Below are positions 33,990 through 64,000 of a stretch of 64,000 nt of DNA, one piece after another. This DNA is from Diphasiastrum complanatum. Lineage: Eukaryota; Streptophyta; Lycopodiopsida; Lycopodiales; Lycopodiaceae. The notes beneath the pieces are model-generated. The model was not told the DNA's origin and made no database searches. It was given only the letters and a program-made list of their open reading frames with translations. How positions within the stretch are numbered: position 1 is the stretch's first letter; the number at the start of each line of letters is the position of its first letter. Where the stretch lies: NCBI GenBank assembly GCA_029204225.1, contig CM055100.1, positions 26,302,649-26,366,648 on the forward strand, in the 5' to 3' direction. Both the position numbers and the translations under genes were made by a program.

Positions 33990-35760
33990 TATTCATAGAA
34001 TTGCTATTGATCTCTACACATGCATACACTGTCTCATTACCTTGTCTAGTAGGGAAGCATATGCAACAATATTTAAACTAATTAGAAAAGCTTTTAAGCA
34101 AGTTCAAATTAGAAAAGTCCCAATCCCTAGGACATATCACTTGAAGAAAGAGAGAGATACATTAAACATAGGTATGCATAAGATCACTGGAACTTCATTT
34201 CATATTGAGGAGGTGTATGAAACTGATGGAAGATCGATATTCTATAATTCATCAAACAATTTATTTGTTGATCTAAATTACTTGCTGAGATACATCGTCA
34301 CATTATATGATATAACCTATGAAAAGGTGAATGGCAAAATAATCATAGTACTTAAGTTAAATGAGTCAGAAATTGTGAAAGGGCAGAAGATGGAGAGAGT
34401 TAGTATAACTCTCATGAATGGTGCTCTATCACAAACAGAGAACCAAGAAGATTTTAGATTCAGTGTCCAGTCAGAAAATGATATATGGTGGTTGGCAGCG
34501 TTTCAGGTAACTAGCCTCATAATTACTTTACATTCATTGAATAGTATTAATACATTGTAAACTAAGTCTGATTAATTCTTTGGACAAGTGCTGAAAGAGG
34601 ATCATGATATATTATCATGGATATTCTCAAGGACATCTTATCCTAGGATCATCAAGGACCATATGGATGAAGGACTTCTCAATGTTCCAGGAGTTGGAGA
34701 CTTCAATGTTGAATGGCACTTAGCAGGTGATTTGAAAACATTGAAATGTGTGTATAATGTCTCTCACGGTGCTACATCAAAACATCCTTGTTTGTACTGC
34801 ATGAAAATGGCAAAAGATGTAACTAGGAGTACATGAATTACTAGAGAATATGCAGAAACTGGAAGCCTGTTCTACCTATCCCCTTAAAAACTGTGCTTGT
34901 TTGCACTCTTCATGCAGAAGTTAGATTAATAGAAAAGATCATTTATCTTCATATAGTTTTTGCTTGGAATACTAAGCCAGCATCATTAGCAAAGGAAGCT
35001 ATCTCTCGATTAGAAGATGTTTTATCAAAAGCGGACTCCATAAAGGACATGTCAAAATTCAAAAAGATGAAAACCTTTCAGGAAAGAATGGGAACATGCC
35101 AACTAAGCCAAGCATAAAAAGCACGTCGTTTTCTATTAAATCATACTGGTAAGGCTTCTAATATTCAACACTCAGTCTGGACAGATATTATTGCTGCCAC
35201 TCAAGATTTTGAGAAAGACGGCAAAACCAGAGTACTAAAAGTTGATGTACGGAAAAAGCTTGATAGAATGATTGCTATTTTAAGAAAAGAAAAATACTCT
35301 GATATTGATAAGAAAGCTGTCCAAAGGACTTGTGTCGAGTTTGTTAATGCAGTATCAAAAGCATGGGGAGAAGATCACATCACTCATTACATGGTTAGTA
35401 TAAAATTTTCAAAATGCTTTCAAATTTTCATATATATTTAGATCCAAACATAAGACTAACATTATGATTTTGACATATGCAGCACATACTAAGAGATCAT
35501 ACAACATTTTTTGCAAGTACATGTGGAAGCTTGAGTGTATGGTCATCACAAGGGATGGAGAAGTCACACTGGCAAGCACAAGTAGCATTTCATCGAAATA
35601 CACAACATGGAGGAACCAATGAAAAACGAAACTACATTTGTAAATTGTTTCAGTGGTTCTACCGCAGAGTTCAGAGTCGACATATAACAAAATCCACACA
35701 ATATAACAAGTTAAGAAAAGCACGCAAGTTCATACAGGAAGAGAAAATTAGATGATTGAT
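33990..35760 (+). pseudogene. Putative transposase of the histone-carrying element (copy A)
   Basis: Exon 1 (to 34506) gives a charged domain (TYHLKKERDTLNIGMHKITG, DGRSIFYNSSNNLFVDLNY) ending AAFQ. An intron fits 34507-34587. Exon 2 reads WHLAGDLKTLKCVYNVSHGA and PCLYCMKMAKD, a D-containing strand followed by a CX2C pair. After a stop and frame change come PVLPIPLKTVLVCTLHAEVR and a helical region up to 35392. A GT-AG intron 35393-35482 (gttagtat to atatgcag) precedes CGSLSVWSSQGMEKSHWQAQ, a segment with a candidate catalytic Glu, and LFQWFYRRVQ. The layout (D region, zinc pair, H region, late E after a Gln-Gly) resembles DDE-type transposases of uncharacterised families. I could not name the family. 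It has several stops and frame changes. The last 420 bp are duplicated at 43485-43900. Confidence 0.45.
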
Positions 35761-35884
35761 GAGTAGAAAATCATCATTGTCATCAAATCATGACATGTTC
35801 AGAATTGCTTTGCAAATTCATTGAACAAGAGAGGAGAAATACTCAATGTAAATGTATTGATTGTATTATACCAAAATACAAAGT

Positions 35885-37384
35885 GTCAACTATTCATCAT
35901 CAGATCTTGTATCAGATTCTATGGCAGTATTGTCATGAAGAAATTCTCTGCTAGCGTATGCATCTAATAGATGTGCATTATCCTTATTTCCACTAAGCTC
36001 AATATAAGTGGAATACAATGAACAATGGGAGCTCCTCAAAGGAACATTCCCATCAGTAAAGCCTAAAATGTTCAAAACATAAGATCTTTTGACAAAAATG
36101 ATCTTATTCGTCTTAACAAATTTATGTCCTCCTAGGTGAAATGATAAAGCTTTGACTGCCATTATAAGACTCTCCCCGATTGGGCTCAGCTTCGAATGAG
36201 CAATACAGATCTCATTCTTCAAGAAATGCCTAAGATAGTGGCCCAGTCCACTGTCCCTTTGGAACGAGGATGCGTGTTGTCTAAAACCACCTCGTCTCGC
36301 AGCAAAATTATTCTTTATAAGAGCATCCTGCAATAGGAAATATGTTAGCAAAAACACATAATGCAAGGAAGATTAAACACTTACACATTCTTCATCAGCA
36401 GCAGCAACCAGATCAGGATGATCAATATAATGACCACGTACTGAAGTGGAATCATTAGTGAAATGCATTAATGATGGATGAGGGAAGCCCATCTGGGATT
36501 GAAATGCCGTGAATTCTTCATCGGATGGTTTGCCTTGCCCATCCTCAGCTATATTTGATAAAGTCTTATTCAGACATTTTTCACCGGTCATAAGTCCCTC
36601 CTCATCATCAAAATCAATACCAGCAACAAGGTCATCTATTTCAAAATCTACAAAGTCGGAGAATTCAAAAATTGTGTCGGATAATAAACATAGAACCTGT
36701 CCTCATGATAGTCAAAAAATTTACATAAATCAGCAATAGTAAAATATACATCATCATTAATATAATATACAAGCAAATTGAAAAGACATTTTGACTCCTC
36801 CATAGATTTGGATTCATCATCAGATGTATTTTGGCCAATGAAAGAATCCCAGAGAACATCAGTATTTACATCAATAAAGTCACTTTCCTTATCAGGAGTG
36901 TCGATAAAAAAGTGACTGATATCCTTAATAGCTAACTGAATAGAGGATGGTGCAAAAGGAAGGTTAGCAATAGAAACTTCATCATCATCTGGGATCTGAA
37001 CTAACAAGAAAAGTACGAAACCACTCTGAAATTCAACCAATCGACATTTCTTGTTGCAATACGGACACATTGAACAACTTTTGAAAAGATCAAATAATTT
37101 GGTGAACATTCTATCCAGTCTATGTCTGAAAGCTGGAAAGAAATGAACAAGATTAGTATAATGCATGTACTGGAGTGGACCTATGGAGAAAACATGCTTA
37201 TCAAGTATATCTCTGAATCTGACATAATGTTCATAAAATACGTTAGAATTGGTTGTGCAGTCCTGAAAACATGTAGATATGGCCTGAATAGACTGTGACA
37301 ATAGTCTAGATTTTTAGTAATCCCAAATTCGCTAAGAAATGAACTCAAGCCTGAATCTCGTGAGGATGATGAGGAAGAGGCCAT
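35885..37384 (-). pseudogene. Unknown ORF B of the element (Ser start, CPYC zinc motif)
   Basis: The start at 37384 reads MASSSSSSRDSGLSSFLSEF. A frame change near 37290 leads to a frame open from 37301 to 36648. This holds MCPYCNKKCRLVEF (two Cys pairs, a possible zinc site), acidic segments (DTPDKESDFIDVNTD, SDDESKSMEES) and ends near 36648. A second open part, 36591-36373, reads SDEEFTAFQSQMGF and HPDLVAAADEEC, then a GT-AG intron (about 36385 down to 36333), then DALIKNNFAARRGGFRQHA and a C-terminus to 35890. I do not recognise it. Its 3' end overlaps the 3' side of the convergent transposase gene by little or nothing. The last 170 bp or so recur at 44030-44205. It is divergent from the H3-like ORF. 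Confidence 0.45.
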
Positions 37385-37397
37385 GGCAGTAACGTGA

Positions 37398-37840
37398 ATA
37401 TCGCACTTGTGCGCGAGGGAGAATTGAACCAAAACTAACTATCAAAATGGTGCACAAGAGAGATATGTACTGCAGGCAAATACCGAATATTGCACTTGTG
37501 CATGAGTAGGTATAGTTGCAAGCAAATGGACAGGCGATGTAAAATCACAAACTTCGATGAATTTTTGTCACTTTTTTTTAGGCTCCGCATATTGCACTTG
37601 TGCGCGTCCTTCACAATCGAAATTTCTCCTACCGTCTTCCATGCGCACAGGTTCGATACGTCTGCCTACGTGTCACTCCATATCGCACTTGTGCATCTTT
37701 CCTCAAAACTAATCGTTCTCTCTGATATTCGGCTTGCACAGGTCCGATATACCATACATTCTGTCCGTACATGTCGGTCCTCTGCGAGTTCTTTATCATC
37801 CCTCCCTCTCATCCTAACCGTCACGCACAAGTCCGCTATC
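37398..37840. promoter_or_regulatory. Divergent promoter space with a two-orientation 15-bp motif array
   Basis: Direct copies of atatYgcacttgtgc lie at 37398-37412, 37487-37501, 37589-37603 and 37680-37694. Inverted copies lie at 37645-37659 (gcacaggttcgatac), 37736-37751 (gcacaggtccgatata) and 37825-37840 (gcacaagtccgctatc), with a weaker one at about 37452 (gcacaagagagatat). Direct copies are 89, 102 and 91 bp apart. The array fills the 471 bp between the start of ORF B and the start of the H3-like ORF. Such arrays of short direct and inverted motifs are bound by the element's own protein in the subterminal regions of En/Spm-type elements; a shared promoter operator is an equally good guess. 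Confidence 0.65.
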
Positions 37841-37855
37841 ACATAGTACACGTCC

Positions 37856-38942
37856 ATGGATAGGATAAGGCAGACAAGGAGGGACTTCTTCTCTCCTGGC
37901 TCATCCTCATCCCCTGCGGTTGCCATCACACCACCCGCTAGACCTAGAAGCGCAACCGCAGCAGGTGGCTCTCTGAGATACGCAAGTATCAGAGATCAAC
38001 AACTCTATTGATCCCAAGAGCTCTGTTCTACCATGCTGTCCGAAACATAACAAGAAATGATCTCGAACAGCTGGTTAGATTTACCCCAGTGCTCTTCAGT
38101 GCCTTCAGGAGGTTGTTGAGGATTACATTAGCCTTTTTTTTGAGGATTCTTTTTTGCTTGCCATCCATTCCAAGAGGGTTACCATAATGCCCAAGGATTT
38201 TCAGCTCCTGATGAGGATGAGGGATAGGTACTGTAGGTTACATGTATCTCAGCCTGCTGCTCCTAGACCAAGTCCTCTAGATAGGACTGATCTTCCTACG
38301 AAGTGTCCTAGGAAGTAGACAACCCCCAAGTGTGCTCCTAAGAAAGTGAAGCCTAACCCTTCAGATTCTGTGAAGTCTAACTCGGAATCCATTGTAGATA
38401 ACACTGCTGTTGATAATGCTGTAAATATAGCTACCTCTGTTTTGGATACCCCTTCAATTGCTATAGATACTACACATCCACCTCCTCCTCCTCCTCCTCC
38501 AAATTTTTATACATATATAGATTCGGATGATTATCTTAAATTTGAGAAAGACATATCCGATGCTATAGATACTATTGGTACTCCTTTTTGCTTTAGACTA
38601 GATGAACTTCATTTTAGTATTAATTTTAGAGTTATAGATTGCTTGGATCTCAAAGTCAGAGGGGCTCCTATCAGTGATCCTGTGATAGAGTCCGGGCTTA
38701 CACTCTTGCAATATGACATTGCAAGAGATTCATCAAATGAGTTCTTGGTGCTGAGTAACTTTCTGCTTCAGGCCTTCAAGGAGAACAATGACACATTGTC
38801 AGTGTTTACACTTCCTGAGTACACATTAAGCCAGGTGTACAGATTTAGACAAGAAATTATTCTGAGTATACTAGCTAGGGCAAGGCTTCAGCCTCCCGTT
38901 ATTGATGATGGTGCAAAGGATGATGTAGTTATACTAAATTAA
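37856..38942 (+). pseudogene. Histone H3-like protein with long C-terminal extension, inside a mobile element
   Basis: The start at 37856 gives MDRIRQTRRDFF, shaped like the H3 tail start, then a Ser/Pro/Ala-rich tail. At about 37972 the frame shifts and the H3 core begins: EIRKYQRSTTLLIP (37975-38016), the alpha-N helix, then LFYHAVRNITRND (alpha 1) and RFTP. A second shift at about 38087 leads to [34 protein letters not shown] and [14 protein letters not shown], that is alpha 2, loop 2 and alpha 3. RVTIMPKD (38175-38198) is the H3 signature. Loop 1 is about one residue longer than in H3, and CENH3 proteins also have longer loops here, but this is weak evidence. Past a TAG at 38316 the same frame runs 208 codons: Lys/Ser-rich, eight prolines at about 38481-38504, then an acidic globular domain (LDELHFSINFRVIDCLDLKV). 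Canonical H3 stops just after alpha 3. The tail does not show an H3K9-type motif. This copy is dead. Confidence 0.75.
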
Positions 38943-39179
38943 GATCAGAAAAAATATAGATAACATAGAACAAAACTACACGTATAGATTTCATAGAAAA
39001 ATATACATTGATATATCAAATGCTGCTCCAGTTTATGAATTTGGGAGCACAAAATACATGTACAGATGCCCAATTTGGGCTTTCATTTATTAAATGAAAG
39101 AGTGTATACACAGATTTTTACTAAAGTTTATTTGAAACTATTGTTCTCCCACAATGGTGATTGTTGTAGGTAGATCTTT

Positions 39180-40690
39180 GCAGCACATTATCAGCTCCTG
39201 TCTTTTTCGCATCTGTGACATGGCAAATATTAGTGAATGTGCAATTGTAAATGATGACGTTTTCTAATATTTTGTTCTATTTTGAAATGGCAATAAACAT
39301 AAAGTACTTACGAGTCTTCCGTTGATGATAAAGCTGAAATATGTTGGTAGATTGGTTTGTAATAGCATGAGCTCTGTTCTGATAAAATCAATCTTCCAAT
39401 GCTCTTCCACCTCAACCATAGTCAAATATTCCTCATTGTAGATAATGCTTATCTCCATTCAGTTTGTGTGACCATTTAGTTCAAAGTCTTGATCCAGTGG
39501 TAGCCATGTACCTTCAATTTTCTTGTATCTCTGGTAGCTAAATGTGAGACTGAGCATTTGCTTTTCGATATGATAACGAAAGATCATTGAGGACTTTTTA
39601 ATCCTGCATTCTATGTCACTATTTGTTTTACTATCCCAGCCTTGATCCATGAGATCTGACAAAGTCTCATCTGATAAATCCTTGCAAACAAATAAAGTGG
39701 TGTCCTACGAACACTAGCAATCGAGAAAAAATCAACAAATATATGCAATGAGATAAACCAACTTAGGTGAACAATTTTTGAGCTTGTGCTTATCTTCATA
39801 GCATTTTTAATATCAATGAGTAGCTTGCATCTCAAGGATTCAGAAACAATGCTGTCAGGAGTAGGCCACTCATCACTTTGAAAACTAGGCAATGGAATTG
39901 CTTCGAGCTTGCCAAAACCTCCATCTGTTTGTGGCGTATATAAAGATTTATAAAAATAGATACCACAATCTGCAAGTTCCTTTGGACTTCTTCCTCTGTA
40001 TTGCAGCTTTCCAACATCAGAGTGAATCATGTCTGATATTCCTGCAAGTGATTGTGTGGGCTCCCATTCACTTATGCATGATGGATATAAATCTGAAAGA
40101 AAAAAACAATGTTGAAGCATTTACATCATAATCTGAAGAGCTTCAATAAAGGAAATCACCTATGATTGCTAAAGAGTGCATATGTTTTGATATATTTACA
40201 ATTATATTTTTGATGATCATGAGGATTGATATCATGTACTTTGATTTCTGAATGCATATGTGCATGTTGGCTAAGACTTCTGATATCGATTGACCTCCCG
40301 GGGTAGTCTTAAACTCCAAATTTTTTGCTTTCCAATAAGATTTATAAGTCATTTTTGCTCTTTTCTTTTGTCAAAAATTGCCCTTTGATGATGGATGCAG
40401 CAATACCCATGAGTTCTTTGTATATTTTGTTGGCTTCTAGTTAGTAGCTTCATCTTTCTCATTGTAAAAAATCACAGAATTGATTGTAGATCTGGGTCTC
40501 CTTGCCATTGCTATTTTCAAAGCTTGGGTGCCAGAAATCTCTCTGATATGATACTTAATTTCAATTTTTCGTATCACATTTGATCTAATGTGAATGCCAA
40601 CATAGTTACAGTTACTGCGTATACCATATTTTATGTAATTGTACATACTATATTTCTATAACTGTAACTAGTATAGTTAGAAAATTTCAT
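39180..40690 (-). pseudogene. Unknown ORF D of the element
   Basis: Minus-strand pieces in order: YIKYGIRSNCNYVGIHIRSN and KIEIKYHIREISGTQALKIA (40640-40530), ARRPRSTINSVIFYNEKDEA, then after frame changes MTYKSYWKAKNLEFKTTPGG (about 40350), then, after a likely intron, SDLYPSCISEWEPTQSLAG through FQSDEWPTPDSIVSESLRC (40100-39830), and a last part with LMDQGWDSKTNSDIEC and LSFTYQRYKK-like text to about 39460, then IDFIRTELMLLQTNLPTYF (to 39264). I recognise no domain. The first part (39901-40919) is present again at 47339-48355, where similarity stops abruptly on the right, so the element probably ends near 40919. Confidence 0.4.
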
Positions 40691-40959
40691 TATACTAACC
40701 AGCATAGTCAAGTAAATTTAACTTGAGGTATTGACGTCGGGTAGATTAGCACGTGTTGGGTAGGAAGAAGAAACCAATGGGATACGTCCATGCTGCCCGG
40801 ACACAAATTTCAAAGTTTTCTATATTGCATTTTTATTTTTTAGTTAATTTGAACTACGTTACGTAGATTTCAAATCTGTGCATTTTGATTGGGCTTGGTG
40901 ATAGTCGAAACTAAAGAAACTCGAATGTGGGACGAATCCTCATCCAATCCAACTGTATC

Positions 40960-43480
40960 ACCATCATGTAAACTTAGTTTCAAATGACTTACATGAAACA
41001 CTGGGTGTACAACCGATTTTCTTTGAAGATCGAGTTACGTCTTGGAATCCTAAGATATACCCAGTCATCAACTTTAAAATCTCTTGGAGATCTCTTAAGA
41101 TCGGTGTAGTGTTTAGCTCTATCCTGAGCACTACGGATACTATCCTTAGCCACTTGCAACATTTCTTGCATATCATGCAAAAAATCAGCAACCTTCTAGA
41201 TCTTTTACAGACTTTGTCTCAACATTTACTGGAGATCTAGGTTGAAAACTGTACATAAGCATAAAAGGACTGTAACTTGTAGCAGAATGTTTTCTACCAT
41301 TATATGCAAACTCAACCAGTGGGAGATAATCTTCCCAATGAGATTGCTTGTGAGAAACATACGTCCTCAAAATATCTTTTATAGTTTGATTAGTCCTTTT
41401 TGTCTAGCCATCTGATTAAGGATGATCAGAAGAACTCAAAGAAGTTTCCTTTATGGAATACTGCTGACCAAAAGTGACCTGTAAACTTAGGATCTCTATC
41501 ACTAACAATGTCACTTGGTAGACCATACAACCGAAATAATCTTTCAACAAAGATCTGGGCTAAATCAGAAGCCTTTATAGTTGACTTGACTGGTATGAAT
41601 GCAACTAACTTAGTTAACCCATCAATCACAACCCAAATAGAATCATTTTGTCATTGGGTCTTTGGAAGTCCAACTACAAAATCCATAGATATGCTTTCCC
41701 ATTTCTTATCTGGGATATCTAACGGATGCAACAGACCACCAGCCTTATGGCGTTCAGCCTTTGCTAGTTGACAGGGCTTGCATTTAACAACATATGACTT
41801 GACATATGGCTTGAGCTTTGGCCAATAAAAATCCCTCTTAGCCAAGTCTAGAGTCTTGTGTATATCGGGATGTCCTGCACAGGGCATGTCATGACATTCA
41901 AACAAAATCTTCCTTTTGAGCTCATCATCACTAGGTACGCAAACTTTTCCATTCTAAAATAATAATCCATCTCAAATGGCGAACTGTTCCACAATCTTTT
42001 TATCTTTCTTAGTTAGTTGAGTCCCCTGTGTTTCTGACTCAACACTGTCCACATTTCTTTCGGTCTGAACAATGTTCCAAATGTGACCAAAATGGGAATC
42101 TGATTCATATTTTTCTCTCAGCGAAAGATATAGATTCGTAAAAATCTGGGTGAATGACAACTCGTTCAGTTCACCGATCCGACTAAGAGCATCTGCAACT
42201 TGATTAGAGCTGCCTCTTATGTAACGGATTTCATGACCAAATTCTTGCATCAATTCAGCCCATTGAGCTTTTCTCCCCTAAAGATCATGTTGATTACAAA
42301 AAAACTTAAGAGGCTGGTCATCCGTATACACTACAAACTTACTACTATACAAGTAGTGTCTCCAGGTTTTAAGTGCATGGATTACAGCAAACAATTCCTT
42401 TTCCTGCGTAGTATAACGCAACTAAGGACCAATGAATTTTTTGCTTTGAAATGCTAGTGGCCTATCCATTTGTAATAGAACTGCTCCAATTGCAACATCA
42501 CTTGCGTTTGTTCTCACGACGTAAGGTAAATCTAGATTTGCAATTTGTAACACGGGAGCTGAAGCAATCATTCTTTTAAGTTTCTCAAAACACTGATTCA
42601 ATTTCTCGTTCCAAACAACAAGCGGACTAGGTTGATTCCTCTTTTTCTTTTTATTAACAATTCCTTTTGTCAGATTATTAAGCGGTGCTGCTAATTTAGC
42701 ATATTCCTCAATAAATCTCTTGCAGAAAAGTGTAAAACCTAAAAGGGACTTTACTTGCCTCACAGTTTTCGGAATTGGACAATCAATCACAATCTTGATT
42801 TTATCCTCGTCAATCTTGAACCCATTTACTGTGATCTTATGACCGAGATAAAGCAACTCTTGTTTAAAGAATTCACACTTGGACTCTTTAGCGTAGAGTA
42901 ACTCCTGACGGAGCTTCATCAAGATGATTTTTAAGTGCTCTACGTGTTCCACCAAGGATTTACTGTAAACGAGAATGTCGTCTAAGAATACTACCGCAAA
43001 CTTTCCCAAATATGGACGAGATAAATCGTTCATCATTTGTTGAAACGTTGCTGGACCATTCACTAATCCAAATGGAAACACTAGAAATTCATAATGACCA
43101 AATGTAGAATGAAATCATGTCTTTTGGACATCTTCTGACTTAATTCTTATTTGATGGTACCCTGTCCTGAGATCTATCTTGGTGAAATATTGTGCTCCAC
43201 CCAAGCGATCTACAAGGTCATCCATCCTGGGTAATGGATATTTATTCTTTATAGTCACTTTATTAAGGCCCTTGTAACATCCGAAAACCTCCATCTTTCT
43301 TCACTTTAAGAAGAACATGAGCGCCCCATGGTGATTACTAGGTTGTATATGTCCCATCTTCAGATAGTTTTCTATTTGACTTGAAATCTCTGTCTCCTCT
43401 TTCTGAGAGGACCTATAAGGTTGTCTAGAGACAGGTTGACTTCTTGGAATTAACTCAATCATGTGGTCTACTGAGTCAAG
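40960..43480 (-). pseudogene. Ty3/gypsy (chromovirus-like) RT-RH-INT fragment without LTRs
   Basis: Minus strand, from the right: RT beginning near 43420 ([32 protein letters not shown]), FPFGLVNGPATFQQMMND, the catalytic FLDDILVYS (42975), then the RT thumb. RNase H follows (TNASDVAIGAVL, YTDDQPLKFF, GSSNQVADALSR), then the integrase zinc finger (CHDMPCAGHPDIHKTL, CKPCQLAKAERH) and core (SMDFVVGLPKTQ, VSDRDPKFTGHFW), and ends in the C-terminal part at about 40964. Stops occur at 42420, 41970, 41645 and in the core near 41425. No LTR, gag or protease is present. Both ends abut sequence of the histone-carrying element (copy A end at 40919, copy B start at 43485). Confidence 0.85.
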
Positions 43481-43484
43481 TTTG

Positions 43485-44205
43485 TTAATGTAGTTTCAAA
43501 AGCATGGGGAGAAGATCACATCACTCATTACATGGTTAGTATAAATTCTTCAAGATGCTTTCAATTTTTCATATATATTTACATCCAAACATAAGATTAA
43601 CATTATGATTTTGACATATGCAGCACATACTAAGAGATCATACAACATTTTTTTCAAACACATATGGAAGCTTGAGTGTATGGTCATCACAAGAGATGGA
43701 GAAGTCACATTGGCAAGCACGAGCAACATTTCATTGAAATACACAACATGGAACAACCAATGAAGAACGAAACTACATTTGTCAATTGTTTTAATGGTTC
43801 TACCGCAGAGTTCAGATTCGACATTTAACAAAGTCCACACAATACAACAAGTTTAGAAAAGCATGCAAGTTCATACAGGAAGAGAAAATTAGATGATTGC
43901 TGCGTAGAAGATCATCATTGTCATCAAATCATGACATGTTCAGAATCGCTTGCAAATTCATTGAACAAGAGAAGAGAAATACTCAATGTAAATGTATTGA
44001 TTGTATTATAACAAAATACAAAGTGTCCACTATTCATCATCAGCTTGTGTGTCAGATTCTATGGCAGTATTGTCATGAAGAAATTTTCTGCTAGAGTATG
44101 CATCTAATAGATGTGCATTATTCTTATTTCCACTAAGTTCAATATAAGTGGAATACAATGAATAATGGAAGCTCCTTAAAGGAACATTCCCATCAGTAAA
44201 ACAAA
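43485..44205 (+). pseudogene. Copy B, left part: transposase 3' end and ORF B 3' end
   Basis: This 720-bp stretch is closely similar to 35336-36060. It contains the last transposase intron (gttagtataaat to atatgcag), the segment homologous to the last transposase exon (with a stop early in it), and, convergent with it, the end of ORF B up to cccatcagtaaa. Similarity starts suddenly at ttgttaatgYag next to the gypsy fragment and stops at 44205. Together with 47339-48355 it shows that the element exists in at least two copies in this window. Confidence 0.85.
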
Positions 44206-45045
44206 TGATTTTTATTCCATTAATCTGATTTGTTCTTTCAATATGGATATAGTTGACTTTCCTAGATGATTGGTCATTTTTAACTCAAAATTAGATGCCA
44301 AAACATCTTCATCTTGTAAATTTAAATCGTCAACTCTTGGTTGATTTTTTGACAATCACTTTCTCTGGCCCTTCGGATCTACTTGCAACATTTCAAATTC
44401 ATACTAGCTCAAAAAAATTGACGTTGAAGTGGTGCTCAACCAATGGACACGTAATACTTTTGTTTGATTACTATTTTAATTGAATTCAAGTACTTTAACA
44501 ATCCAAAATGGACGTTCTTCTCTATTTTATGAAGCTAAAAGTGCAACAAGACTTCCAATTTGGATTTCATTCAGATCATCACACCACTTCATTTTTGCAA
44601 GTTTTGCAGTTCGTCTATTTCCACATATCGTAATTTTTTTAGTTTACAAAAAATTATTTGGAAACCACTCCAAATTAGTTGTGAATTATCAAATTGCTCT
44701 TATGTTTTAATTTTGAATTATATTTTTATCTCACTATTTAATGTAAACATTCAAATTCATTTATTTTTAATTTATTTTTTTAGTTTTTAGTTTTCTAGAT
44801 TTTTATTTGATTTTTTTTAAATCTTTCAGAAAATTAAATCTCTAAAAGATTTTAGTTTTTAATATTTCATTTTTATGATTTTTTTAAGTTTTTTTGATAT
44901 TTTATTATTTATTATTTATAATTTTTGATTTTTTAATAATTTAGTTTTTAGATTTTTTTTTTTAAATTTAACTTTTTAATTTTTAATTTTTTGATTTTTG
45001 AATTTCCAAACTTTGAATTTTAAAAATTGTTTCTAAAACTTTCAC
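44206..45045. other. Extremely AT-rich segment, no gene
   Basis: It takes the place that 36060-39900 has in copy A. From about 44700 to 45040 it is mostly runs of T and A. No coding motif is visible. Confidence 0.5.
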
Positions 45046-45047
45046 GT

Positions 45048-45475
45048 AGTTTCTCTTGCTATGCTGAGCATAGCAAGAGAAACTTTTGCTATGCTCAGCA
45101 TAGGAATGGATGTGGAGGTTTCTTTTGCTATGCTGAGCATAGCAACAGTTGCTCTTGCTATGCTTAGCGTAGGAATGACTATGGGCCTTCATCACCTTTG
45201 TTGTCAACTTTGTCGACAAAGCGTAGGTTCAACATTTTTGTGCTGAGCACAAAAATGTTGAACATAGGACCACTTTGTCGATAAAGTTGTCAACAAAACA
45301 TTCGCCTTCAACGAAGGCCCATTTTGAGTCCTATGCTCAGCATAGGACTCGATATGGGCCTTCGTTGTTTTTAACGCAACGACATTTGAGCATACCCATT
45401 TTGAGTCCTATGCTCAACATAGGACTCAATATGGGCCTTCGTTGTTTTTAACACAATGGCATTTGAGCATATATT
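45048..45475. repeat. Palindrome cluster with core CTATGCTgAGCATAG
   Basis: A hairpin with 18-bp perfect arms and a one-base centre lies at 45048-45084 (agtttctcttgctatgct / agcatagcaagagaaact). A second, also 18-bp arms and one-base centre, is at 45227-45263 (gttcaacatttttgtgct / agcacaaaaatgttgaac); it is nested in an outer inverted repeat (about 45199-45224 with 45270-45297). The core recurs at about 45090, 45128 and 45158 (variant). Then a 77-bp tandem repeat (45321 and 45398) carries gagtcctatgct and its inverse around another one-base centre, followed by gggccttcgttgttttt. Confidence 0.9.
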
Positions 45476-45926
45476 CGCGGAAATGTCTTTCATATGCAAA
45501 TTAATCCATATGCAAGGCTGTGAACTTCCTTGTTTTTACAAAATTACTAGAATGAATAACTTATTGAGAAGATGGTTGGGATGGAAGACCCATGAAACTC
45601 AATGTTTATTATAGTTCATGTGGCACACGCCCTAGGGACACAATGGTCATGATGATTGAACTAGAAGTTTTCACATTTGAATTGATAAGGCAATGGATTT
45701 CTCCTCCATTTTTGTAGGGCTTGCATACTTGACAAGATCAAAGTGGTGTTGCTCATCCATATTTGTTTTGTTGAAAGGATAAGCTTGTGAAGGGATCTTA
45801 TGGGCCTGAGACATACTTGAATTTCAATAGAACTTTTCAAACATAAAGTTTGAAAAGGGTTGAATGGTGAATAATACGTTGAAGGGCACATTTGTTTCAA
45901 ATAGAAGAACCCGTTCAAAAGTTTTG

Positions 45927-45998
45927 AAACCTATGCTCAGCATAGCAAGAAAACTTTCAAAAGTTTTCTTGCTATGCTGAGCATAGCGAAAAACTTTT
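45927..45998. repeat. Inverted repeat built from two copies of the palindrome core
   Basis: The arm ctatgctcagcatagcaag plus aaaact (from about 45931) is followed after a few bases by its reverse complement ending ctatgctgagcatag (about 45986). Each arm itself contains a palindrome, so alternative hairpins are possible. It lies about 450 bp to the right of the main cluster. Confidence 0.85.
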
Positions 45999-46089
45999 AG
46001 GTTTTGCTCTCTCTTATATCCGCTCTGCTGAAATTTGACTTAAGTATCGATTAGGTGGTCCGAAATGTCGTAGAGCTGTATTGAATTTA

Positions 46090-46345
46090 CTCCAATTTTC
46101 AAAATGGTAATGGCTGGTTGAGAGTGTTATACACTTGATTATTCAAAATGATTTCATAGTTTCAAAGCAAAATGCCATGCTATATTGTCCATGTAATGAG
46201 ATTAAGGTTACTATAGGTATTGATTGATTATCATTGAATTTACTCCAGACTTCAAAATCAAGGGGAGATGTTGGGAGTTCATGATGACCGTATGAGAGTG
46301 TTGTATAGTTGATTATTCAATATGATTTTATAGTTTCAAAGTAGA
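46090..46345. repeat. Direct repeat of about 90 bp at 177-bp spacing
   Basis: gagagtgttatacacttgatt and the following 40 bp (from 46121) recur at 46298 with several changes; the preceding gaatttactcca also recurs. Confidence 0.7.
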
Positions 46346-46349
46346 TGAG

Positions 46350-47338
46350 ATTTGTCAACAACTCTATTTGGCACTAACTGTCATGCTATCACTAAATAAT
46401 GAGCTATTTTATGCATTCAAAATTTTATTATTTGCAATTGTTCTTGTTGAATATGTGATTGTTCTTCAATACAAAGCACCACAAGATATTTACAAGCAGG
46501 TTAGCAAACTAATATCAGTTTGGTACAAGGTCTGGCATTTTAGTGGTCTTCCTAGGTGTGGAAAGCTTGTAATTGGCCTCCTCTTGGGCAACCCATTGCT
46601 ACAAATCTTGGCCCAAGTTTTCATAGTTGCAACTTTGTCCCAAATTAAAGTTGCAAGCTATATTCTCAACATTCTGGACTCATGACAAGGTCTAACTATG
46701 GTACTTTGTCTCGTGGTAACAAAGAAACGAATTAAAAAAGCAACACACTCTCAAAAAATCAACATACTTTTTAGCATCTCCGAAATTGAAAAACAAACAT
46801 CTCAAGTTGGCGCATATTTTCTAAAATCTTCTCCAGCCAGACATAACACAATCTTTACAAATTTTCAAATAGTAAAATTTCACATTTTTTTTAGTTTTGT
46901 CTTGTATATAATTTTCAAAAATTAATTTCAAATTTCAATGTTCTAGTCATTACAATCACTCTTTAACAAGTCAAATATGTGTAGTTTAAAAAAAAATTAC
47001 CAAATAAGTTAATCTTAGAATTTTTAAACCGTTAAAATTACTTTAAATCGTAATTGTTTTTCTCAGGTTCAAATTCAAAGTTTGAAAATTTGACATTATT
47101 CTGATTTTTTTTAATGAATAAGTTGTTCACATTCAAATATGTTTTAATAAAAATAAATTTAGAAATGAGAAAAAAAAATGATCGCTTATATTTTTCATAT
47201 TTGTAAATTATAACAAAATAGACTTTTTTAAAATTTTAACTTTTTTTTTTGGAATTTAACGTTCAAAATTTTGACATTTTTTCACTAAAATTCCAACTTC
47301 TTAGAAAAATGGGTGTCTAGGTCATTTATCTTTTTTTT
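46350..47338. other. AT-rich DNA, no recognisable gene
   Basis: Low-complexity AT-rich sequence. The 105-codon frame at 46368 has no recognisable motif and no supporting signal, so it is not called. Confidence 0.45.
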
Positions 47339-48355
47339 TGAGCTTGCCAAACCTCCATCTGTTTGTGGCGTATATAAAGATTTATAAAATTAGATACCAC
47401 AATCTGCAAGTTCCTTTGGACTTCTTCCTTTGTATTGCAGCTTTCCAACATCAGAGTGAATCACGTCCAATATTCCTGCAAGTGATTGTGCTGGCTCCCA
47501 TTCACTTATGCATGATGGATATAAATCTGAAAGAAAAAAACAATATTGAAGCATTTAAATCATAATCTGAAGAGCATCAATAAAAAAAATCATCTATGAT
47601 TGTTGTAGAGTACATATGTTTTGATATACTGACAATTACATTTTTGATGATCATGAGGATTGATATCATGTACTTTGATTTCTGAATGCATATATACATG
47701 TTGTACTAAAACTTACGATATCGATTGACCTCCCGGGGTAGTCTTAAACTCCAAATTTTTTGCTTTCCAATAAGATTTGTAAGTCATTTTTGCTCTTTTT
47801 TTTTTGTCGAAAATTGCCCTTTGATGATGGATGCAACAATACCCATGAATTCTTCGAATATTTTGTTGGCTTCCAGTTATCAGCTTCATCTTTCTCATTG
47901 TAAAGAATCACAGACTCGATTGTAGATCTGGGTCTCCTTGCCATTGCTATTTTCAAAGCTTGGGCGCCAAAAATCTCTGTGATATGATACTTAATTTCAA
48001 TTTTTTGTATCACATTTAATCTAATGTGAATGCCAACATAGTCACAATTACTGCGTATACCATATTTTATGTAATTGTACATACTGTATTTCTATAACTA
48101 TAACTAGTATAGTTAGAAAATTTCATTATACTAACCAGCATAGTCAAGTAAATTTAACTTGAGGTATTGATGTCGAGCAGATTAGCACATGTCGGGCAGG
48201 AAGAAGAAACCAATGGGATATCTCCATGCTGTCCGGACACAAATTTCAAAGTTTTCTATACTGCATTTTTATTTCTCTGTTTATTTGAACTACATTACGT
48301 AGATTTCAAATCTGTGCATTTTGATTGGGCCTGGTGACGGTCAAAACTAAAGAAA
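47339..48355 (-). pseudogene. Copy B, right part: N-terminal half of ORF D and element end
   Basis: About 1 kb closely similar to 39901-40919, same orientation, with the same intron-like gap and the same reading pieces (YIKYGIRSN, ARRPRSTI, TYKSYWKAKNLEFKTTPGG). Similarity on the right stops at ctaaagaaa in both copies, after which the flanks are unrelated; this is the best candidate for a terminus of the element. On the left it stops at gagcttgccaaa after a T-run. Confidence 0.85.
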
Positions 48356-49630
48356 AAAAAAGTATCTTTACAAAGGGTCTTTTTTTATTTTGGAACTCCT
48401 CTAATGTGTATACATACAGTTTTGTTTAATGATCATGCTAGACTATACCAAATGTAGACGTTATTCAAGTGTCAAAAAGAAAGTATTCGCGACAGATGCA
48501 TAAGATGATTTTAAGACAGTTCCTTAGAGCATATTTACGGATACACAGCAAACGACTATAATGCGCTAGAGAGTTTGTCTGATCAGAGAGTAATTCATGT
48601 AATGCGTTAGAGATTGCTAGTACACTCGGGATCACTCACACTCAATAGTGCGGAGAACAGAGATAAGGGAGAATAACTCTCAGCACTCTATTCACTTCTT
48701 CAACCTTTTACAAATACATAAACTCTTCTCTCTCGATGGTCAAGACTGAAGTGTGAGATCAATAGATGTTCTACGGGACGAACAAACACACCTCTAAACT
48801 ATAGGTGCGTCGCTTTCGTGAAAAGGTCTAGTTAACAATTAGGTTGAGTATATGTCCAATTATACCATAAGAGGTACATTTAACTAAGAGTTAAAATTAC
48901 TCTAGTTTAACATGTCGATTCATATAGAGTCGTTTCGCGTGGATGACCTAATAAAGACTATCCAAAGCAATGTCTTCCCTTTTAAAGGTCTCATCCTTAA
49001 ATACAAGGCAAGTACTTTGGAGATATATTCTCAAAAAATGACTTAGGCCTCTTCATGATCTATATTTATCCAGCACATATTTTCATTTTCGAGTATATCA
49101 TGCCATGTTTAAGTTGATATTCAATATTTTAACAATTTCATGGCATCACAGAGTTCCAAAGAATTGAAAACACTCTTGGATCTCACATGCAACTTAAACA
49201 CAACTCACTTGTGTGAAATGATGTGGCTATGACCTCACAAACTTGCTCAAAACAATTCTATCTTTGATTGATATACTCAAAAATGGATTTAGAATCAAAC
49301 TAGCAAATTCCTGGATCAAATCAAAAGTGGCCACATAGGATTAGGCGACCTACCCACCGTACTTCAAGTGTTTACAAATCTTGCTAGGCTCATCAAAATG
49401 ATTTGAAATCAATTGCAATGGAAAGTAGACATTTCTAGCTTTCTAGCAAGCTATACTGTCAATATTTTTGGATAAAGCATAAGGGAGAACAAAAGGAAAG
49501 AGATGGGCTAGATTTCACACGTGTGAATAGTCTAAAATCCATACATCCTCTGTTCAGATCTAATCATTTAAACATTAATGACCTTCACAATTGGAGAACA
49601 AGAAAGCTCGTCTTTGAAAACAGAGAGTAG
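48356..49630. other. Intergenic, no recognisable gene
   Basis: AT-rich sequence with only short frames. No coding motif was recognised. Confidence 0.4.
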
Positions 49631-60600: not shown

Positions 60601-63345
60601 TCATTCCTTTGTTGCTAGAAAGTAATTGTTCTTCTGGTTATAGTCTTCTTGGTATGACAAGTTCAGATACCCCCCCATTCCTCGATTGCCCATTGGTGCG
60701 AGGGGGTTATCACTTAATATATTATTAACAAGATGCGTATACCAACTATCCTTGGTCAGGATTTCAGACATCTCGGCAGAAGGGACAATTAGTAAAAGGG
60801 CAACATATCTATATTCGAGAAATTTTGCTTTAATGTACAGTTGTTGAACAGACAGGAGGGCATACGAAATAAGAGAAGCAGTATTTACATGGTTGTAAGT
60901 GTAATACGATCTAGTTATTGGATTAGTGGAGCAAAGTATATTATTTGTTTTTACTTCCTCCAAATAACAAGAATAGTTAGCTTCCCAATCTGTGTAGATT
61001 TCCCACAGATCAGGGAATAGCAACTGATGAGTAACTCAGGAAGAAACTGATTTAGAGTTAGAGACAACTTTCTTCACATCAAAAATGTTAATTGATTCTA
61101 ATTTATTCAAATACTCATCTAGAGCTGGAAAAATATTATTTTCGAATGTTCTTAGATATTCTAAAATTTATATATACAAGGATCCTACGATCACATGGAT
61201 ATAGTTAGTTTGCACATTGAACTTGTTCTGAACAATGGCAAGGGCGAGGATTCCTTTTTGATGTATAGTTAGTCTAGACCAAAGAGTATTTATGTTAGAA
61301 AAAGTCCAAGGGTTTTCCCATTGTTCTTTTGTGTAGCCAAAAAGTTTAGGTAAGAAAGGTAATCCATTCTCCATTGGAGTTCTGGACTACAAAAAGGTGG
61401 AAGAAAGAATGCTAGTTCCTAATGAAATGTCTGAAATTCTGACCTTAGTAGTGAGTGCACAATCTTGGTTTTCTTTACAACTACTCCACTTGGTGACGCC
61501 TGAGCTTGATATGGAATGATGCTTAATGCCTCAGATTGGTCTTCAGCAGTTTGTACCTCTGCAGCCTCCTTGGATTCAGTCTGTGTCTCCTGATCCTTCT
61601 GGACTTGCCTGCAGATGGTATCCATTTGGATGGCCTGTTCTGACATAACCGATGCTGGCTCATCTGTTTGTGTCTCCTGATCTTGGCCTTGTGCTGGTTC
61701 TTCCACATCAGAAATCTGCATTTAGCCTGATTGAAATTTGGCCTCTTCTAACTCTTCCTTCAACTTTTCATAAGCAATCATCTGCGACTGCAGATATTGC
61801 AGCTGGAAGGTCTAAATCATCTTCTCTTGGATTTTCTTCCATGCTACTGGATTAATTCTGTACCTGCCATGAGATATGCAGGCACCTAGTGTGACTTCGG
61901 CGCTGATTTGCCATAGTATCTTCTCTTCGGCCTGTTTCTTGTATATCTGACTGTCTCTTCTTAACATTTCTACAGAATTTTGCAGTTGGGCAATTGAATC
62001 CTGAGCACTGCTGAGTTTGTTACTCAGCTCCGCATTACTACTCTAAAGAGTAGTTCATACACGTCTCTCCTCCTGCAAAGAAGTCTGCAGGTCTGAAGTT
62101 GTTGTTTAGGCAGTATAATTTCACTTTTGAAGGTATTGGAGTGCTCTTGCATTTCTTTCAACACTTCGAACATAGCGTCCTACCTTCCATTTGCTTCTTC
62201 AAGCTCTATGTTTTTCTTGCTCAGCTCTGCTGGGGCCACTTCAAGTACTTTGGTTTTATAGGCCAGCTCAGCCTTTGTTTCGCTCAACTCTGTATCCCTT
62301 TGGGAGAGGTCTGTTTTTATTCTTTCATACTTTGATCCCAGCTTCCTGGATACTTTCTCCAAGCTGGCAAGATGTTGAATAGTTTCCCTCGTATCCGGCA
62401 GTAGTGTTCCAAAAACTTTTGATATAATTCGGCATCGAGAATTGGTGCCTCGACGTCGCTTTCGTTGCCCTGCTGGCCATCAAGAAGTTGTTCTACTCCT
62501 TGTGGTGCTGGATCTTGTGGTATATCAACCTGATTGTGCTCCTGATCAGCTGTGTCCTCCGCTTCCTCTTCCGCATCCCTATTTCCGTCTGTGCTGGTCA
62601 ATGGCGTATACTGGGATGATGGTGAAGTCATTCTCACCGAGCTCCCTTGACTTGATGATGATGATGTGGTTGCTACGGTGGTTGCGTTTGATGTCTGCAT
62701 CTGGGATTCGGCCTCAATTGATGGGGCTAGCTCTGATAGCACTGGTCTCAACACACCAGCATGCATACATAAAATGTCCGTCTGCTGACCTAGTCTAGAA
62801 AACTGATTAACTTTTACTATTTTACAAAATTGCTTGAAAGCAATCTGTCCAAAGACAATCGGCTCTCCATTTAACAAGTATCCCATATTTGTATTTGAGA
62901 TAGTGTATTCTTGCTCTGATAAAAAGATAGAAGCAAGAGCAAATCGAATGAAGCTCTTGAGATTGGGATCTCTAATGTAAGAGAGTTTATATCCCCGTTT
63001 CTCAAGATAAGCTTCTTCTTGAAAAACTCCACTCTCCGCGATAAAATACGGTTTAGTAACTGGCATACTGTCATCCATAGGCAATCCTAAGGCACGAAAG
63101 TAAAATCCTTCTGTAATAACAATCTCTTGATTGCGAACAATAGTGGAAATATGTCCTTCTTCCGTTTCCCCCAAATTGCAAATCAGCTCATAACACAAAT
63201 CAGTAAGAATTACTGATGGGTTAAATTGAAGAAGACCTTCAATTCGCGCTCGAACAGCTAGTGGTTGTAATATGGTATCACTGGCTTTGGGTGCGTTTTG
63301 AATACAATCGCCATGGTGCTTGCAGTTGTAAACGAGCGATGGCGG
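60601..63345 (-). pseudogene. Large unknown gene, broken (acidic and coiled-coil middle)
   Basis: The best frame, 63198-62317 (293 codons, and open upstream to about 63340), begins with a folded domain (GHISTIVRNQEIVITEGFYF, FQEEAYLEKRGYKLSYIRDP, PNLKSFIRFALASIFLSEQE). It passes into a Ser/Thr-rich and then acidic linker (EEEAEDTADQEHNQVDIPQD), and ends YCRIRGKLFNILPAWRKYPG. After a frame change a coiled-coil segment follows (SQRDTELSETKAELAYKTKV, 62362-62180). Then comes a Gln/Glu-rich part (61721-61419), and, back in the first frame, WENPWTFSNINTLWSRLTIH (61300) and PDLWEIYTDWEANYSCYLEE to a stop at 60601. I recognise no family. The order domain, linker, coil, domain suggests one long protein of a mobile element or host that has decayed; it could also be two genes. 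Confidence 0.35.
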
Positions 63346-64000
63346 ACAAGAGCTTGATCACAACAATTCGCAAATCGGAGAGCAAGAGTGATGGAAAGTG
63401 GTAGCAACAACAACTGAAGTGTTTAAGGTTTTAGACGTGTTGATGATATTTTGGCGGATTAGACTAATGTTAAATGGAAGCGTGTCCTTGGTTTTGAAGG
63501 TACATACTCAATAATAAAGTGTCTAGTCCTAAAAACAAAAATAAATAAATAAATGAATAAATAAACAAAATACACGAATGCTTCGCTTGGTAAATCAAAG
63601 CGAAGATTATTATGCGAAAAATGCGAAGGTGTCAGAAGGTAGAAAATCTCAAAAAATGCGAAGGTAAGTGTTGCAATTTCCATATTTCTAAAATGGTAAA
63701 TTCACTTAATACATAGTATTCCAATGTAGTGTCGGGTTTTTCGCAAAGTACAAGCAATGTAGCAATGCTTCGGTATTTTTGGCATTTTTGCTAAAAATGT
63801 AACTTGGTTTCGGCATTTTCGCAAAAACTTTGGTAAAAATGATGCACCGAAAATTAGTCACCTTGAAATCCACTTTTCCATTTGTCCACAATTATATAAT
63901 ATGAATGTGTCAATTTTTTCTTTTAATTAAGGTGAAAGTCTTTTTTGCACACCATTTCCTTGTGGTACTTCACCCTTAACCCGTTCATCTTGTTCTTCAC
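63346..64000. other. No recognisable gene; gcgaa-rich tail
   Basis: Between about 63570 and 63840 the words gcgaa and gcgaag recur (for example gcgaaaaatgcgaaggtg) and appear inverted as ttcgc/ttcgg. No gene was recognised. Confidence 0.45.

What the first reader, a model, noticed from the sequence alone, without database searches (positions are those of the whole stretch)
37856..38942. A histone H3-type protein with a 200-residue extension encoded inside a repeated mobile element
The H3 core is visible without a database: EIRKYQRST, LLIP, the alpha 2 segment with [11 protein letters not shown] and [11 protein letters not shown], plus an H3-like tail start. The extension after the histone fold stays in the frame of alpha 3 past one TAG. 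H3 proteins are normally single-domain, and plant DNA elements are not known to me to carry one. An element-borne H3 could mark or shield its own chromatin, or aim insertion at centromeric or other special chromatin. This copy has two frameshifts and a stop, so function can only be tested with other copies.
Basis: partly seen in the sequence, partly recalled or inferred. Interest (0 to 1): 0.9.

Follow-up and report, generated by a model that had tools for sequence, protein, structure and literature searches.

The report
Transposon carrying a histone H3–protease fusion
A high-copy plant jumping gene carries its own histone H3-like protein fused to a SUMO-protease-like domain; the copy in this window is broken, but at least one other copy has the whole gene open, and the pattern of changes suggests that selection kept the histone part working.

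Summary
In detail: window 37856-38942 encodes an H3 fold (joined pieces, Pfam Histone 1.3e-18) broken by two frameshifts and a stop. It lies in a multi-copy DNA transposon with ~36-bp terminal inverted repeats. One full-length copy is 9,451 bp; the genome has 604+593 exact 31-bp ends (control 0+0) and 3013 first-look candidates for the H3 region.

The "200-residue extension" is the remnant of a second domain. Other copies carry ~660 bp more here: three introns and the core of a Ulp1/C48 cysteine protease. Locus L041 has the gene open over 480 codons, with Histone 1.4e-24 and Peptidase_C48 7.6e-9 in one protein.

Differences fixed between subfamilies indicate purifying selection on the H3 core (10 synonymous, 2 nonsynonymous, p 2.7e-6; against introns p 0.026), less firmly on C48. 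Of 20 fetched H3 copies, 19 keep gene A, B or D, in one order and strand. A second high-copy H3-bearing repeat family exists.

Inferred, untested: an element-made H3 mimic, keeping the K4 context but lacking K9, brings a de-SUMOylase to chromatin against silencing. The catalytic Asp is not clearly present.

The parts
34047..40919 (+). Element copy 1, both ends missing: about 1.45 kb lost at the left, about 55 bp at the right
   Evidence: Extent of matches to the fetched copies; left end in L016 lies 1,453 bp before the base matching window 34056; right end lies 55-60 bp beyond the base matching 40919
34047..35755 (+). Remains of gene A (putative transposase; no Pfam match)
   Evidence: Open frames; matching longer frames in L035; Pfam 0 families for the X-joined pieces
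35890..37400 (-). Remains of gene B (unknown function), divergent from the H3 gene
   Evidence: Open frames; 328-353-codon frames in L034, L011 and L028; no Pfam family above cut-off
37399..37694 (+). Four TATYGCACTTGTGC sites between divergent genes B and H3-C48
   Evidence: 37399, 37488, 37590, 37681; four sites, one mismatch allowed, in 5 of 6 other copies checked
37533..37534 (.). Junction of a ~340-bp deletion relative to other copies
   Evidence: Gap in matches to other copies
37856..38942 (+). Remains of the H3-C48 gene: H3-like tail, H3 fold, linker, and the two ends of the C48 domain; two frameshifts and one TAG
37972..38225 (+). H3 fold (across a frameshift)
38801..38804 (.). Junction of a ~660-bp deletion that removed the C48 core (His and Gln/Cys motifs) and three introns
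38804..38942 (+). Exon 4 of the H3-C48 gene (C-terminal end)
39459..40500 (-). Remains of gene D (unknown function)
   Evidence: Open frames; longer frames in L034 and L035; no Pfam family above cut-off
43472..48406 (+). Second, rearranged copy: 43472-44200 and 47337-48406 match the element, 44200-47337 does not match copy 1; right terminal repeat ends at 48406

Best explanation
SHOWN: the window holds a decayed copy of a DNA transposon family (full-length example 9,451 bp, about 36-bp terminal inverted repeats) with four genes in the order A(+), B(-), H3-C48(+), D(-). The third gene encodes one ~480-residue protein: a short H3-like tail, an H3 fold, a basic/Pro-rich linker and a Ulp1/C48 cysteine-protease-like domain, in four exons. 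INFERRED: gene A is the transposase. The H3 part takes the protein to chromatin, by pairing with H4 or by presenting an H3-K4-type tail without K9. The C48 part removes SUMO or another ubiquitin-like tag from chromatin proteins there, which weakens silencing of the element or lets its DNA be cut. Anatomy about 0.95 likely; H3-guided de-SUMOylation against silencing about 0.3.
For: Multi-copy element with terminal inverted repeats. One protein with both domains: L019 spliced, one stop, Histone 1.8e-21 and C48 3.9e-7; L041 spliced, no stop in 480 codons, 1.4e-24 and 7.6e-9. Introns GT-AG in most of 10 copies surveyed. Selection: H3 core fixed differences 10 synonymous/2 nonsynonymous, p 2.7e-6, CpG-type contexts masked p 3.1e-4; C48 14/15, p 4.5e-4, masked p 0.017. 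Gene order kept in 20 copies. Tail keeps K4 in 21 of 23 rows and K9 in 0 of 23. His, Gln and Cys of the C48 site align with yeast Ulp1.
Against: The catalytic Asp of Ulp1 aligns to Val or Asn. Synonymous fixed differences in the H3 core run 4.3 times the intron rate, so the ratios above flatter selection; measured against introns the H3 core gives p 0.026, C48 p 0.062, linker p 0.54. Within subfamily 1 the ratio is also below 1 (0.48 for H3 core). No expression data. Gene A has no Pfam match and its fold was not predictable. Target-site duplication not shown: 1 of 5 complete copies has a 3-bp match. No relatives of the C48 half found.
Confidence: 0.55

Rival explanations
1. The C48 domain is not an active protease but a SUMO-binding tether: the H3-C48 protein holds SUMO-marked chromatin proteins, or the transposase, at nucleosomes.
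For: Catalytic Asp aligned to Val or Asn; C48 selection weaker than H3.
Against: His, Gln and Cys positions are kept in L041 and, where not hit by stops, in many copies.
Confidence: 0.2
2. The H3 fold works as a DNA-wrapping subunit of the transposition complex at the element's ends or at the TATCGCACTTGTGC sites, not in nucleosomes.
For: Iterated sites between the divergent genes, four in 5 of 6 other copies checked; H3 core is the part with the lowest nonsynonymous rate.
Against: The tail keeps the H3 R2-K4-Q5-T6-R8 context in most copies, which suggests contact with chromatin readers or writers.
Confidence: 0.12
3. Passenger: an H3 (perhaps CENH3-like) gene and a protease gene captured from a host, carried without a function for the element.
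For: Gene capture by plant DNA transposons is well known (established knowledge); grouping with CENH3 not rejected, p 0.089.
Against: Low nonsynonymous rate in the H3 core; fused gene present across subfamilies and copies; a second H3-bearing repeat family.
Confidence: 0.08
4. The element is a relic of a DNA virus or Polinton-like element, whose Ulp1-type protease matured capsids and whose histone packed DNA.
For: Ulp1-like proteases in Polintons and relatives (passages of PMC10175614); viral histones exist (recalled).
Against: No polymerase, integrase or capsid family by Pfam in the gene pieces scanned; full copy only 9,451 bp; viral-contig searches empty (close relatives only).
Confidence: 0.05

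Closest known systems
P0008, an H3 + Peptidase_C48 protein (391 aa, source label lgn, organism not given)
   Same: Same order of domains, H3 then C48; H3 parts 54% identical over 95 residues
   Different: H3 part much nearer to canonical H3; C48 parts align only weakly; has a D in the usual place of the catalytic site; genomic context unknown
Crypton elements with a C48/Ulp1 peptidase (CryptonF, CryptonS)
   Same: Mobile element carrying a C48/Ulp1-type peptidase (passages of PMC3212892)
   Different: Cryptons use a tyrosine recombinase; no histone mentioned in the passages seen; here terminal inverted repeats and an H3 fused to C48
Polinton/Maverick elements
   Same: Ulp1-like cysteine protease, terminal inverted repeats (passages of PMC10175614; repeats recalled)
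   Different: No polymerase, integrase or capsid gene found; 9,451 bp
CENH3/CENP-A
   Same: Divergent H3 with changed tail; loop 1 one residue longer than in canonical H3
   Different: Lacks the Trp typical of CENH3 loop 1/alpha 2 in the references used; separate branch in the tree; fused to C48; in a transposon
Transposon anti-silencing proteins such as VANC of VANDAL elements (recalled, no call)
   Same: Would work like: an element-encoded factor that lifts silencing
   Different: No sequence relation tested; VANC is not a histone or a protease

Membership tests
Core histone H3 | H3 histone fold above the Pfam cut-off | tested here: met
   L041 Histone 1.4e-24, 87.1 bits against 26.4; best PDB matches named histone H3
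Core histone H3 | Canonical N-terminal tail with K4, K9 and K27 | tested here: not met
   K4 context kept in 21 of 23 rows, K9 in 0 of 23; the ARKSAP stretch around K27 not seen in the L041 protein
CENH3/CENP-A | Groups with CENH3 in a tree | tested here: inconclusive
   Separate in the best tree, but grouping not rejected, p 0.089, with one recalled and one PDB-derived reference
CENH3/CENP-A | Located at centromeres | not testable with these tools
   Needs cytology or ChIP
Peptidase C48 (Ulp1) | C48 domain above the Pfam cut-off | tested here: met
   L041 7.6e-9, 36.2 bits against 20.7; L019 3.9e-7
Peptidase C48 (Ulp1) | Catalytic His, Asp and Cys with oxyanion Gln | tested here: inconclusive
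   His, Gln and Cys align; Asp aligns to Val or Asn
DNA transposon with terminal inverted repeats | Inverted repeats at both ends of many dispersed copies | tested here: met
   Four copies bounded by the exact 31-bp repeat; 604+593 exact occurrences, control 0+0
DNA transposon with terminal inverted repeats | Target-site duplication | tested here: inconclusive
   1 of 5 complete copies (L034) has a 3-bp match; L035, L036, L037 and L017 none
DNA transposon with terminal inverted repeats | DDE transposase | tested here: inconclusive
Polinton/Maverick | Protein-primed polymerase, integrase and capsid genes | tested here: not met
   None in the gene pieces scanned with Pfam; pieces come from decayed copies
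Crypton | Tyrosine recombinase | tested here: not met
   None in the gene pieces scanned with Pfam; pieces come from decayed copies
KDZ/Zisupton-type transposons (recalled) | Family-specific transposase | not tested
   No profile at hand; literature searches timed out

The most novel reading that the evidence does not exclude
A new class of plant DNA transposons, with at least two high-copy families in this genome, that encode their own histone H3 variant. In one family it is fused to a de-SUMOylating protease, so that an element-made H3 mimic without K9 brings an anti-silencing enzyme to chromatin.
Probability: 0.3. Interest if true: 0.95.

Novelty: new variant of a known kind. Interest (0 to 1): 0.82.

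Why it matters
Ulp1-like proteases are known in mobile elements, but I know of no DNA transposon with a conserved histone gene, and the three answered literature searches listed none (partial coverage, nine others timed out). If the protein enters chromatin, an element would be making part of its host's chromatin fabric and delivering a SUMO-directed enzyme with it. That would be a direct handle on how transposons escape silencing, and a natural H3-enzyme fusion. A copy with an open gene (L041) makes this testable.

Tried and rejected
Centromere-targeted insertion: end clusters on contig C1 (65.0-66.7 and 95-100.6 Mb) suggested it. But the 67-bp left end (76+89 exact matches, first 100 listed) has only 3 places on C1 and is spread over the contigs listed, and 7 flanks read from the clusters fall into two sequences, one per cluster. 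Amplified host segments fit better.

Spliced-copy (retro-processed) reading of the 660-bp loss: rejected, because the 5' breakpoint lies inside exon 1 and not at its donor.

Viral origin: searches of viral contigs with the extension and with P0008 found nothing (close relatives only).

Homologues: of the joined protein, 23 hits, all by the H3 part as far as coverage (22-35%) shows; of the C48 half, none at E up to 10 among 1047 candidates. The gene A search could not be made. AlphaFold2 for B and A gave pLDDT 33 and 32; no fold search was run.

Literature: searches were answered; searches failed, so the check is thin.

Full report
What is in the window. Window 37856-38942 encodes an H3 fold in three frames in register, with a stop before the last 207 codons. 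Pieces joined with X match Pfam Histone at 1.3e-18 and PDB H3 chains at 1.4e-17; the separate pieces match at 8.5e-5 (below the curated cut-off) and 6e-11. The 207-residue run alone had no Pfam match.

The element. The window's own genome (1.74 Gb, 5176 contigs, not named, not identified by me) gave 3013 first-look candidates for 37856-38942; 40 were scored, and the 39 other than the window itself are 92-94% identical. I fetched 20 of these as 10-kb loci. Matches extend over 34047-40919 of the window. Ends were found from shared match limits and from the inverted sequence CATTAGAGGAGTTCTCAATATCAAAAAGACC. That 31-mer occurs 604+593 times exactly, its reversed control 0+0. A pair on contig C1 is 9,451 bp apart (L034); others span 8,091, 5,410 and 2,592 bp. 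Target-site duplication is unresolved: of five copies with both ends (L034, L035, L036, L037, L017) only L034 has a 3-bp match.

The true gene. In other copies the place between window 38801 and 38804 holds about 660 bp more: the end of exon 1, three introns and two exons. Of 10 copies surveyed, GT donors are in place in 8, 9 and 10 and AG acceptors in 9, 9 and 8, for introns 1, 2 and 3. The extra exons read, in undamaged copies, DHWSLNLIS... and SPQQNDSFSCGWYTLYNAKLF. Spliced, L019 gives 478 residues with one stop, Histone 1.8e-21 and Peptidase_C48 3.9e-7. The best PDB match for its second half is yeast Ulp1 (1euv), E 0.0049. L041 gives 480 codons without a stop, Histone 1.4e-24 and Peptidase_C48 7.6e-9. 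The Asp of the Ulp1 triad aligns to Val or Asn, so activity is open.

Selection. Against L041 and L034, which belong to another subfamily, 21 copies of subfamily 1 (20 fetched plus the window, some incomplete) give pairwise dN/dS 0.17 for the H3 core, 0.31 for C48, 0.51 for the linker and 0.25 for the tail; within subfamily 1 the values are 0.48, 0.49, 1.74 and 0.45. Differences fixed between the subfamilies (L041 equal to L034; at least 80% of at least 8 copies agreeing): H3 core 10 synonymous and 2 nonsynonymous, C48 14 and 15, linker 11 and 11, tail 4 and 1, introns 17 of 294 sites. Fisher p 2.7e-6, 4.5e-4, 0.0075 and 0.0098; with CpG-type contexts masked, H3 core 6/2, p 3.1e-4, and C48 8/14, p 0.017. 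A caution: synonymous fixed differences in the H3 core run 4.3 times the intron rate, for which I have no explanation. Against introns the nonsynonymous rate is 0.23-fold in the H3 core (p 0.026), 0.52-fold in C48 (p 0.062) and 1.26-fold in the linker (p 0.54). So selection on the H3 core is supported, that on C48 is suggestive. Copies share ancestry, so these p values are rough.

Linkage. Of the 20 H3 copies, gene A is found in 14, B in 17, the C48 core in 17, D in 13, in the order A(+) B(-) H3-C48(+) D(-) wherever present; 19 keep at least one of A, B and D, and L023 only the C48 core. Missing modules lie outside the 10-kb pieces or are lost; I did not separate the two. Four TATYGCACTTGTGC sites lie between B and H3 in the window and, with one mismatch allowed, in 5 of 6 other copies checked.

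Tail and tree. The tail reads MDR(R/K)KQTRRDFF: the H3 pattern R2-x-K4-Q5-T6-x-R8 (as in the canonical tail of P0014) with D or G in place of K9. K4 is kept in 21 of 23 rows, K9 in 0 of 23. In a 28-row tree, in which only 4 of 25 inner branches are starred, the element H3 forms its own branch (100/98), outside H3.1/H3.3 and outside CENP-A/CENH3; grouping with CENH3 is not rejected, p 0.089.

A second H3 family. A search with canonical H3 gave 6039 first-look candidates and 154 matches, 13 of them full-length at 96-98% and many divergent at 44-55%, several in open frames of 300-440 codons. Seven divergent ones were read: L041 is family 1; L038, L039, L040, L042, L043 and L044 have a Pro-rich region before a C-terminal H3 fold (Pfam run on two: L042 1.4e-28, L039 3.8e-24). 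The L042 stretch gave 648 candidates; of 40 scored copies 38 hold both the H3 part and the part downstream. Downstream is a minus-strand frame with weak likeness to gene B (26% over 100 residues, E 0.002 in a set of 9 by BLASTP; not reported by phmmer). In the tree this H3 is the nearest group to the family-1 H3, at 94/85, unstarred. This suggests, but does not show, one wider group of histone-bearing elements; I did not find the ends of family 2, so that it is mobile rests on copy number.

How it may work (inference). The likeliest reading is a chromatin-going de-SUMOylase: the H3 part docks on chromatin, the C48 part removes SUMO-like tags, and silencing of the element drops. A tail without K9 fits a product that cannot carry that silencing mark. 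Weak points: the unclear Asp, the unassigned gene A, and no expression data.

Known context. Passages of PMC3212892 report C48/Ulp1 peptidases in Crypton elements; passages of PMC10175614 list Ulp1-like proteases among Polinton-group genes. Neither shows a histone carried by an element in the passages seen. Three answered searches listed no histone-bearing transposon; nine others failed. P0008 is another H3 + C48 protein, organism not given, so the pairing is not unique to this genome.

Noticed in passing
L038, L039, L040, L042, L043, L044 (C10, C18, C17, C10, C4, C16 of G000): A second high-copy repeat family with a Pro-rich region and a C-terminal H3 fold, followed by a minus-strand frame weakly like gene B.
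   Followed up: partly
G000 contig C1, 65.0-66.7 Mb and 95-100.6 Mb: Dense clusters of the element's right end; 7 flanks read fall into two sequences, one per cluster, so host segments carrying an element end seem to have been amplified.
   Followed up: partly
P0008 (protein database): An H3 + Peptidase_C48 protein of 391 residues from an unnamed source, on a 4,779-bp contig.
   Followed up: partly
window 43472-48406: A second copy of the element whose middle (44200-47337) does not match copy 1 and holds AT-rich DNA and short inverted motifs.
   Followed up: no
H3 core of L041/L034 against subfamily 1: Synonymous fixed differences are 4.3 times the intron rate; unexplained, perhaps mutation context or recombination between subfamilies.
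   Followed up: no
window 62317-63357 (-): A 346-codon open frame without a Pfam family above cut-off.
   Followed up: no
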